Shown: positions 62,054-64,000 of the stretch, in pieces | How the letters are laid out: each line of letters starts with the position of its first letter | Numbering within the stretch: the stretch's first letter is position 1 | From: Psychrilyobacter atlanticus DSM 19335 | GTDB taxonomy: Bacteria > Fusobacteriota > Fusobacteriia > Fusobacteriales > Fusobacteriaceae | Length of the DNA stretch: 64,000 bases | Assembly: GCF_000426625.1 (NCBI RefSeq) | Contig: NZ_KE384547.1 | Span: 1,603,159-1,667,158, forward strand | Direction: 5' to 3' | The notes under the pieces: generated by a model | What the model saw: the letters and a program-made list of their open reading frames with translations, nothing else | What the model was told of the DNA's origin: nothing | Databases searched by the model: none | Position numbers and translations under genes: made by a program

Positions 62054-62290
62054 ATGACAAAAAAACAAGTTTTATTCTGGAGATTCACCTTAATTTTGGT
62101 TGTTATTTCAGGTGGATATTTTATAACTCAAAAGATCTCAGGTAATAAAAATAAAAGTATAGATCAGGTAGTAGAGGTTAAAAAAACAGCAAAAGATATC
62201 GATATCAATAAAAATGATGAAAAAACAGTTGAAAAAGAGGTAGAGTTAAGTATCAGACCAGATGATTTTTATAAAAAAAAGAAAAACTAA
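62054..62290 (+). CDS. Small single-pass membrane protein of unknown function
   Basis: A 78-residue protein with one N-terminal helix (FWRFTLILVVISGGYFI, about 9-25) and a strongly charged, lysine-rich remainder. No family recognised. It begins four bases after the folC stop codon and ends 35 bases before the HPr kinase start, with AGGTAG as a weak ribosome site. Codon use agrees with its neighbours. Confidence 0.6.
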   Translation: MTKKQVLFWRFTLILVVISGGYFITQKISGNKNKSIDQVVEVKKTAKDIDINKNDEKTVEKEVELSIRPDDFYKKKKN

Positions 62291-62325: not shown

Positions 62326-64000
62326 ATGATTAAAAAATTTGTAAGGTTATCAAAACTAGTGAAAGCTTTTGAATTCACTGTAATCTATGGGGGATTAGAT
62401 AATCTAGAAAGAAAGATCTTACTCCCTACAGTGCATAGAGTAGGAGCTGAATTAACTGGATTTTTGGTAGAAGGAGATGAACTCAATAAGCAGCTACACG
62501 TTTTAGGGACAGAGGAGATGAGGTATATCGATTCCCTTTCCTCGGAAGTGAGAAAAGACAGATTGAAAAAATACTTTTCCTATAATTTTCCTTGTATCAT
62601 TGTAGCCTGTGATAAGGATATCCATCCTGATTTTATAGAATATGCTAAAAAACATAATAAACCTCTTTTGACCACTAAAAATAAAACTGCAGTTATCATA
62701 AGGAAATTAAAATATTATCTCCAAAGAAAATTAGCACCTGAAATAAGGGTAGAGGATCATGTTTTAATCGAAATCCTAGGAATAGGTGTTTTGATAGGTG
62801 GTTATGAGGATGCAAAGATTGGATCTACCCTAGAATTAATCGAAAGAGGCCACAAATATATTACAGATGAAAATTTAATTATTAAAAAAATCGGACCCGA
62901 TATCCTCTTAGGAGAAAATGGTTTTGATAAGAGTAACGTCAAAACACATTTTTATTTGGGAACAGGCAGTGAGAATATAGATATTACCAATAACTATGGG
63001 ATTATTGCAACTCGGAGAACTAAGGAGATAAACCTATATATCAATCTGGAAAAATGGGATAAAAGAAAGTTCTATGACAGGTTGGGAATAGATAAACAAT
63101 TCGAAGAGATCCTGGGAGTTCAAATTCCTAAGCTAAGTCTTCCTGTACGAAGGGGAAGAAATCTAGCTGTAATAATTGAAACGGCAGCTATAAATGAAAG
63201 GTTGAAGCAAATTGGAATGAATTCTTCTGAATATTTTTTAGAGGAAACTAAAAAAATGATCGCTTTTAACAAAGAGAATAAGAAAGGTGATAAGATGAAT
63301 AAAAATATTTTGACAGTAAAGAAAATAGTCGATGAATTTGGTCTAAAAGTTATTACGGGAGAGGAGTTTTTAGAAACAACTTATATAACTAAGACTGCAC
63401 TTCACAACCCTGCCTTGGCACTTTCTGGATTTTATGAAGTATTTTATCAAAATGGTTCTAAGAGTTTACAACTATTTTCCCAGGGAGAATTAAATTTTTT
63501 AAAGAGCCTGGATGATGATGTTAAATATAGAAATTTAAACAATTTTTTTGACTTTGACTTCCCTGCTATGATAATAGCAGATGCAGATGAGATTGAGCAA
63601 TGTTTTATCGATCTATCTAGGGAAAAAAAGAAGATCATGTTATTTTCCGATAAAACTTCTACTCAACTAACAGCAGACTTAAACCAATTTTTAGAAAAAA
63701 AGTTTGCTCCTAAAATCACCATGCATGGAGTTTTTGTTGAGATGTTTGGATTTGGTGTGCTTCTTACTGGTAAAAGTGGAATTGGTAAGAGTGAAACCGC
63801 TCTAGAGTTAATTCATAGAGGACATAGATTGATTACGGATGATAAAGTAACTTTTCATGAACATCCCAGTGGAATGGTGATAGGAAAAGCGGATAAAATC
63901 CCTTATTTCATGGAACTTAGAGGTCTCGGTATCATAGATATCAAAGCTCTTTATGGATTAGGGTCTGTAAGAAAAGAAAAAAGATTAGATGCAATCATAG
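62326..64000 (+). CDS. hprK: Tandem-duplicated HPr kinase/phosphorylase, N-terminal copy degenerate; 3' end cut by window
   Basis: One frame runs from ATG 62326 (GGGGGG upstream) to the edge, 558 codons. I read every codon and found no stop. Residues 1-323 and 324 onward are two HPrK-like halves. The second is canonical: His467-Gly468, P-loop GKSGIGKS (482-489), LIHRGHRLITDD and LRGLGIIDI. The first keeps the frame (LELIERGHKYITDE at 169-182) but has GGYEDAKIGS (158-167) where the P-loop should be, lacks the catalytic His position, and has LGTGSENIDI in place of LRGLGIIDI. HPrK phosphorylates HPr on Ser46 and controls sugar use. The first half probably regulates or scaffolds. Confidence 0.85.
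   Translation, partial: MIKKFVRLSKLVKAFEFTVIYGGLDNLERKILLPTVHRVGAELTGFLVEGDELNKQLHVLGTEEMRYIDSLSSEVRKDRLKKYFSYNFPCIIVACDKDIHPDFIEYAKKHNKPLLTTKNKTAVIIRKLKYYLQRKLAPEIRVEDHVLIEILGIGVLIGGYEDAKIGSTLELIERGHKYITDENLIIKKIGPDILLGENGFDKSNVKTHFYLGTGSENIDITNNYGIIATRRTKEINLYINLEKWDKRKFYDRLGIDKQFEEILGVQIPKLSLPVRRGRNLAVIIETAAINERLKQIGMNSSEYFLEETKKMIAFNKENKKGDKMNKNILTVKKIVDEFGLKVITGEEFLETTYITKTALHNPALALSGFYEVFYQNGSKSLQLFSQGELNFLKSLDDDVKYRNLNNFFDFDFPAMIIADADEIEQCFIDLSREKKKIMLFSDKTSTQLTADLNQFLEKKFAPKITMHGVFVEMFGFGVLLTGKSGIGKSETALELIHRGHRLITDDKVTFHEHPSGMVIGKADKIPYFMELRGLGIIDIKALYGLGSVRKEKRLDAII

What the first reader, a model, noticed from the sequence alone, without database searches (positions are those of the whole stretch)
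62326..64000. Double HPr kinase with a dead-looking first half
A single uninterrupted frame encodes two HPrK-like units. The second has all kinase motifs. The first has lost the P-loop lysine and glycine pattern, the catalytic histidine site and the HPrK signature, yet retains the flanking secondary-structure motifs. HPrK normally forms a hexamer of about 310-residue chains; a fused degenerate copy would change the assembly and could act as a built-in allosteric or HPr-binding domain. Whether this is general in fusobacteria is unknown to me.
Basis: partly seen in the sequence, partly recalled or inferred. Interest (0 to 1): 0.6.

Follow-up and report, generated by a model that had tools for sequence, protein, structure and literature searches.

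The report
Fusobacterial tandem HPr kinase, halves complementary
Fusobacteria that have a sugar-sensing HPr kinase carry it as two fused copies that have lost opposite parts of the working site, so the "dead" first copy probably completes the active site of the second, and the gene also seems to carry a second, internal translation start for the second copy.

Summary
The tandem is real: one 634-aa frame, cut by the window end, with two HPrK N+C units. It is general. All 64 intact genes from 18 fusobacterial genera are tandem (608-676 aa), and no single-domain HPrK was seen in 98 Fusobacteriota genomes. The fusion itself was reported for Fusobacterium nucleatum in 2008. "Dead first half, complete second half" is wrong in an informative way: the halves have degenerated reciprocally. 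Half 1 lost His140, the P-loop, Asp179 and the HPrK signature (P-loop in 0/64). Half 2 keeps these in 64/64 but lost Trp237, the Arg245 loop (YDRLG, 0/64) and the Pro266 loop, which half 1 keeps in 64/64. In solved HPrKs these second residues reach into the neighbouring subunit's site. The best reading is a self-complementing kinase whose composite site is catalytic half 2 plus donor half 1. Support: a reduced 269-aa relative keeps the half-1 donor segment plus catalytic half 2; and Ser46 in the partner HPr is present with the tandem (68/69 genomes) and replaced by Asn in 20 HPrK-less relatives. New and untested: a conserved Shine-Dalgarno plus NTG start at the junction predicts a separate half-2 product.

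The parts
62326..64000 (+). Tandem HPrK gene (634 aa; continues about 230 bases beyond the window)
62341..62721 (+). Half 1, Hpr_kinase_N domain (residues 6-132)
   Evidence: Pfam PF02603; AF2 model
62728..63243 (+). Half 1, Hpr_kinase_C-like domain ('donor' half, catalytically degenerate)
   Evidence: PF07475, 134 bits
62800..62826 (+). Degenerate P-loop of half 1, GYEDAKIGS (canonical GxSGxGKSE; one residue shorter)
63046..63216 (+). Donor module kept only in half 1: LEKWDKRKFYDRLG...PVRRGRNLAVIIETAA...G (contains equivalents of L. casei Trp237, Arg245, Pro266)
   Evidence: 64/64 first halves, 0/64 second halves; structural role from PMC9399212
63283..63291 (+). Shine-Dalgarno-like element AAAGGTGAT in the linker
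   Evidence: duplex energy -9.7 kcal/mol
63295..63297 (+). Candidate internal start codon ATG at the natural N-terminus of half 2
63310..63693 (+). Half 2, Hpr_kinase_N domain (residues about 329-456)
   Evidence: PF02603 second stretch
63700..64000 (+). Half 2, Hpr_kinase_C domain (catalytic half; continues to about 64197)
   Evidence: PF07475, 170.8 bits
63724..63726 (+). Catalytic His (L. casei His140 equivalent, H467), 64/64
63769..63795 (+). Intact P-loop GKSGIGKSE of half 2
63838..63843 (+). Catalytic Asp-Asp (L. casei Asp178-Asp179 equivalents, D505-D506)
63913..63939 (+). HPrK signature ELRGLGIID of half 2

Best explanation
It is the HPr(Ser46) kinase/phosphorylase of this organism, built as a self-complementing tandem. 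After one ancient duplication-fusion the halves specialised. Half 2 keeps the catalytic face (His140, P-loop, Asp179, signature). Half 1 keeps the donor face that in ordinary HPrK hexamers reaches from the neighbouring subunit into the active site and onto HPr (Arg245 loop, C-terminal region, Pro266 loop). One chain would thus supply both faces of one composite site; probably three chains form a pseudo-hexamer with three working and three dead sites. It would phosphorylate and dephosphorylate Ser46 of the HPr that carries NGKSIMGLM. Shown here: tandem, reciprocal loss, generality, HPr co-variation. Inferred: the composite site and its geometry, the oligomer, the activity.
For: Against 93 single-domain HPrKs, 49 kinase-domain positions are conserved. 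20 are kept only in half 2 (all between residues 140 and 210, L. casei numbering) and 8 only in half 1 (all between 237 and 293). P-loop: half 1 0/64, half 2 64/64; YDRLG and PVxxGRN: half 1 64/64, half 2 0/64. The literature places Arg245 and the C-terminal helix of one subunit with His140', Ser157', Asp179' and Glu204' of another around one HPr (PMC9399212). Half 1 and half 2 are each monophyletic (100/99), consistent with one duplication and long retention; both stay constrained (kinase-domain pairwise identity 49% and 60%). A reduced relative (G067, L070) has lost both N domains and the half-1 P-loop region but keeps the half-1 donor segment plus catalytic half 2. HPr with Ser46-Ile-Met is present in 68 of 69 HPrK-bearing genomes (the other is an incomplete genome with no HPr found) and in 0 of 29 without; in 20 of the latter the matching HPr has Asn46, and the rpoB tree suggests at least two losses.
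Against: No activity, structure or oligomer was measured. Half 2 retains GRN and Glu278 of the C-terminal region, so its own donor face may be altered rather than lost. The AlphaFold model (pLDDT 84.6, pTM 0.70) could not be examined in coordinates, so contact between the donor loop and the P-loop is unproven. The L. casei geometry was taken from a secondary paper. Position-level reciprocity is shared by descent and need not count as many independent events.
Confidence: 0.68

Rival explanations
1. Half 1 is a regulatory pseudo-enzyme (allosteric or scaffold): half 2 is self-sufficient and half 1 senses metabolites or binds HPr elsewhere.
For: Half 1 keeps its own N domain, and much of its degenerate loop (DAKxG) is itself conserved across most genera. 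Pseudo-enzyme fusions are common (general knowledge).
Against: It does not explain why half 2 lost exactly the donor positions kept in half 1, nor why the reduced G067 protein dropped the rest of half 1 but kept that segment.
Confidence: 0.2
2. The gene makes two products: the full-length tandem and, from a conserved internal ribosome-binding site at the junction, a separate half-2 protein of about 310 aa. The mixed oligomer's composition sets activity. (Compatible with the best explanation.)
For: Best Shine-Dalgarno energy next to an in-frame NTG at the junction: genus mean -8.4 kcal/mol against -1.6 for same-size windows elsewhere in these genes (0 of 20000 as low); 94% at -6 or better against 7%; comparable with the genes' own starts at -9.6. 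Stronger than synonymous recoding of the same peptide (22 of 20000; 14 of 18 genera, Wilcoxon p 0.0023). Internal SDs are generally depleted in coding regions (PMC5100845).
Against: Most of the signal (-6.9 of -8.4) is already fixed by the linker peptide. One genus-12 member is weak (-4.3). The reduced G067 gene lacks the site. No translation data. It could be a relic of separate genes or a pausing site.
Confidence: 0.5
3. Half 1 is a decaying duplicate with no role.
For: Loss of the P-loop, His140 and signature.
Against: Retained in all 64 intact genes of 18 genera, with the YDRLG and PVxxGRN motifs invariant; 49% mean pairwise identity in its kinase-like domain.
Confidence: 0.03

Closest known systems
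Single-domain HPr kinase/phosphorylase (HprK/P; L. casei 1jb1/1kkl/1kkm/2qmh, S. xylosus 1ko7, M. pneumoniae 1knx)
   Same: Same N and C domains and fold in each half; half 2 has the full catalytic motif set; Ser46-HPr is present in the genome.
   Different: Two units per chain; catalytic and donor modules sit on different halves; probable internal translation start.
Fusobacterium nucleatum tandem HPrK noted in PMC2405797 (2008)
   Same: Same architecture: two HPrK domains in tandem. This is the prior report of the fusion.
   Different: In the passages read there is no word on degeneration, reciprocity, range, HPr co-variation or internal start.
C-terminal-domain-only HPrK of alpha-proteobacteria and Coxiella (3tqf)
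   Same: Shows the N domain is dispensable, as in the reduced G067 protein.
   Different: Single catalytic unit.
Heteromeric enzymes with one degenerate subunit that completes the partner's site (e.g. trypanosomal deoxyhypusine synthase, from memory)
   Same: Same logic: a dead-looking paralogue supplies part of the active site.
   Different: Here the two are fused in one chain, and the fold is P-loop HPrK.

Membership tests
HPr kinase/phosphorylase (HprK/P) | Hpr_kinase_N + Hpr_kinase_C domains over cut-off | tested here: met
   Both families, two stretches each
HPr kinase/phosphorylase (HprK/P) | P-loop GxSGxGKS, His140, Asp179, signature in one unit | tested here: met
   Half 2, 64/64 for P-loop, His and Asp
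HPr kinase/phosphorylase (HprK/P) | Arg245 loop, Pro266 loop and C-terminal module in the same unit as the P-loop | tested here: not met
   Half 2 0/64 for YDRLG; present in half 1 instead, 64/64
HPr kinase/phosphorylase (HprK/P) | An HPr with Ser46 in the same genome | tested here: met
   67/69 by pattern plus G097 by inspection
HPr kinase/phosphorylase (HprK/P) | ATP- or PPi-dependent phosphorylation and phosphorolysis of HPr-Ser46 | not testable with these tools
   Needs biochemistry
HPr kinase/phosphorylase (HprK/P) | Homo-hexamer | not testable with these tools
   Oligomer not modelled; a trimer of tandems is inferred
Pseudokinase domain (half 1) | Loss of nucleotide-binding and catalytic residues with fold retained | tested here: met
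   P-loop 0/64, His140 0/64, E163 0/64; phmmer to 1ko7 3e-47 over most of the chain; AF2 pLDDT mostly above 80 in half 1
CcpA-type catabolite repression partner | CcpA over the NCBIfam cut-off in the phylum | tested here: not met
   0 of 98 genomes over the TIGR01481 cut-off, though many LacI-family relatives are present

The most novel reading that the evidence does not exclude
One gene encodes, through a conserved internal ribosome-binding site, both a tandem HPrK whose two halves make a single composite active site and a separate catalytic half. Fusobacteria would then tune HPr kinase/phosphorylase by the ratio of donor to catalytic domains in a mixed hexamer.
Probability: 0.3. Interest if true: 0.78.

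Novelty: new variant of a known kind. Interest (0 to 1): 0.62.

Why it matters
If right, nature has separated the two faces of the HPrK site that homo-hexamers keep on one chain. That makes a long-standing question directly testable: what the neighbouring subunit's Arg245 and K3 loops contribute to kinase against phosphorylase activity. Each face can be mutated alone in one polypeptide. It also gives a clear case of reciprocal degeneration after fusion, and a clade where loss of the kinase coincides with loss of Ser46 in its substrate.

Tried and rejected
Sequencing or assembly artefact: rejected, same fusion in 64 assemblies. Tandem HPrKs outside Fusobacteriota: none seen among about 120 HPrK-bearing genomes of other lineages; the four longest frames checked were upstream read-through of single HPrKs. 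Extra weak PF07475 hits in G031 and G033 are MiaA, chance P-loop matches. CcpA as partner: no member over cut-off. The AF2 model gives no coordinates here, so the domain interface could not be inspected. The apparent conservation of NTG itself is partly built in by my choice of NTG codons; only tests with the same choice in the controls or with synonymous recoding are used. Original structure paper (Fieulaine 2002) not held. No ribosome-profiling paper on Fusobacterium recognised.

Full report
What is there. A single frame starts at 62326 and is still open at the window end. In the genome it is 634 aa and carries Hpr_kinase_N and Hpr_kinase_C twice. Half 1 is residues 1 to about 321. A short linker reads NKENKKGDK. 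Half 2 begins at Met324, where an ordinary HPrK would begin. Each half matches the solved S. xylosus enzyme 1ko7 almost end to end. An AlphaFold model of the 86%-identical relative L104 folds with mean pLDDT 84.6 and its best PDB match is 1ko7. Upstream lie mtnN-like and folC-like genes and a small membrane-anchored frame; downstream are a YitT-family gene, folB and folK.

Generality. In 98 Fusobacteriota genomes, 69 have HPrK hits. Sixty-four genes are intact and all are tandem, 608-676 aa, from 18 genera. Four more are broken or cut in drafts and one is a reduced tandem (G067). No single-domain HPrK was found in the phylum. In a wider sample the HPrKs of other lineages were single-unit; the four longest frames checked were upstream read-through. 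A tree puts all first halves together (100/99) and all second halves together (100/99), with largely parallel branching. One duplication-fusion before the sampled Fusobacteriota diverged is the simplest reading. The tandem of F. nucleatum was noted in 2008 (PMC2405797); the passages read do not mention degeneration.

Reciprocal degeneration. I aligned both halves with 93 single-domain HPrKs and took the 49 kinase-domain positions conserved in at least 85% of them. Twenty are kept only in half 2: His140, Gly141, Ser157, Gly158, Gly160, Ser162, Glu163, Asp179, Glu204, Arg206, Gly207, Gly209 and others, all between residues 140 and 210 in L. casei numbering. Eight are kept only in half 1: Trp237, Phe/Tyr243, Arg245, Gly247, Pro266, Ile276, Ala281 and Ala293. 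Seventeen, mostly structural glycines, are kept in both. No first half has GxSGxGKS and every second half has the loop; every first half has YDRLG and PVxxGRN and no second half has either. My numbering comes from the L. casei sequence in the PDB alignment anchored on His140, and it reproduces Arg245 and Val267 as named in the literature.

Why that matters. In the L. casei hexamer one HPr is held by two adjacent subunits: the catalytic site of one, and the C-terminal helix and Arg245 of the other. A docking paper defines the substrate site as Arg245, Thr294, Leu301 and Ile305 of one chain with His140', Ser157', Asp179', Arg180' and Glu204' of the other, and places the K3 loop (266-271) of one subunit against its neighbour (PMC9399212). 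The fusobacterial halves divide these same two sets. The simplest mechanism is a composite site made of half 2 (catalytic) and half 1 (donor). The homo-hexamer's six equivalent sites would become three working and three dead ones. The composition and symmetry of the oligomer are inference.

A natural deletion. One small genome (G067) has a reduced version: a 287-aa frame, 269 aa from its likely start. Both N domains are gone and so is the half-1 P-loop region. The half-1 segment NWNKEEHFDRLG...IPIKKGRDVGILIEVAVL and the catalytic core of half 2 remain. The same genome keeps the Ser46-type HPr. That is what a composite-site enzyme would be expected to keep.

Substrate co-variation. A DNA pattern for NGKSIMGLM of HPr hits 67 of 98 genomes: 67 of the 69 with HPrK and none of the 29 without. 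The two exceptions are G097, whose HPr reads DAKSIMGI (Ser46 kept), and G060, 76% complete, where no HPr was found at all. In 20 of the HPrK-less genomes the most similar HPr has Asn at position 46; the others have only other HPr paralogues or none. On the rpoB tree the HPrK-less Leptotrichiaceae-like genomes form two groups separated by HPrK-bearing ones (SH-aLRT 94), so two losses are likely but not certain. This supports a working HPr-Ser46 enzyme in the genomes that keep the tandem. HPr orthology was judged by similarity, not by a tree.

Internal start. The linker DNA carries a Shine-Dalgarno-like element followed by an in-frame ATG, GTG or TTG at the start of half 2 (here AAAGGTGATAAGATG, 63283-63297). 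The best duplex energy at the junction averages -8.4 kcal/mol per genus, against -1.6 for same-size windows elsewhere in these genes (0 of 20000 as low), and the genes' own starts average -9.6. With the peptide held fixed and codons recoded synonymously the expectation is -6.9, so most of the signal is carried by the choice of linker residues; the remaining excess is significant (22 of 20000; Wilcoxon p 0.0023 over 18 genera). SD sequences are usually depleted inside genes (PMC5100845). I read this as a probable internal translation start giving a half-2 product, at about even odds. A relic of two genes, or a pausing site, is possible. G067 lacks it.

Verdict. An HPr kinase by homology and genome context, in a new, phylum-wide variant. 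The fusion is known; I found no earlier account of the reciprocal split, the substrate co-loss or the internal start in the literature held here.

Noticed in passing
62054-62290; L104 to L107 just upstream of the tandem gene: A short single-pass-membrane-like frame (62-78 aa, no Pfam match) sits between folC and the tandem hprK in this and related genomes.
   Followed up: partly
L070 (G067 contig 10): Reduced tandem HPrK of about 269 aa without N domains, apparently a minimal composite enzyme.
   Followed up: partly
L238, L240-L252, L254, L255, L257, L258, L260, L267: HPrK-less Fusobacteriota carry an HPr in which Ser46 is replaced by Asn, some with insertions near residue 38.
   Followed up: partly
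L218, L237 and other second HPr copies: A second HPr paralogue (GLHTRPG...GKSLLKLL or GTSLLKLL) is found in genomes with and without HPrK.
   Followed up: no
62800-62826 and first halves in general: The degenerate P-loop of half 1 is itself fairly conserved (G-x-x-DAKxG in most genera, not in the g25 genomes); possible retained ligand or structural role, unexplained.
   Followed up: no
Whole phylum: No CcpA over the NCBIfam cut-off in 98 Fusobacteriota, so what reads Ser46-phosphorylated HPr there is unclear.
   Followed up: partly
L033:8756-9649: folK is fused to a 2-thiouracil desulfurase (DUF523-type) domain.
   Followed up: no
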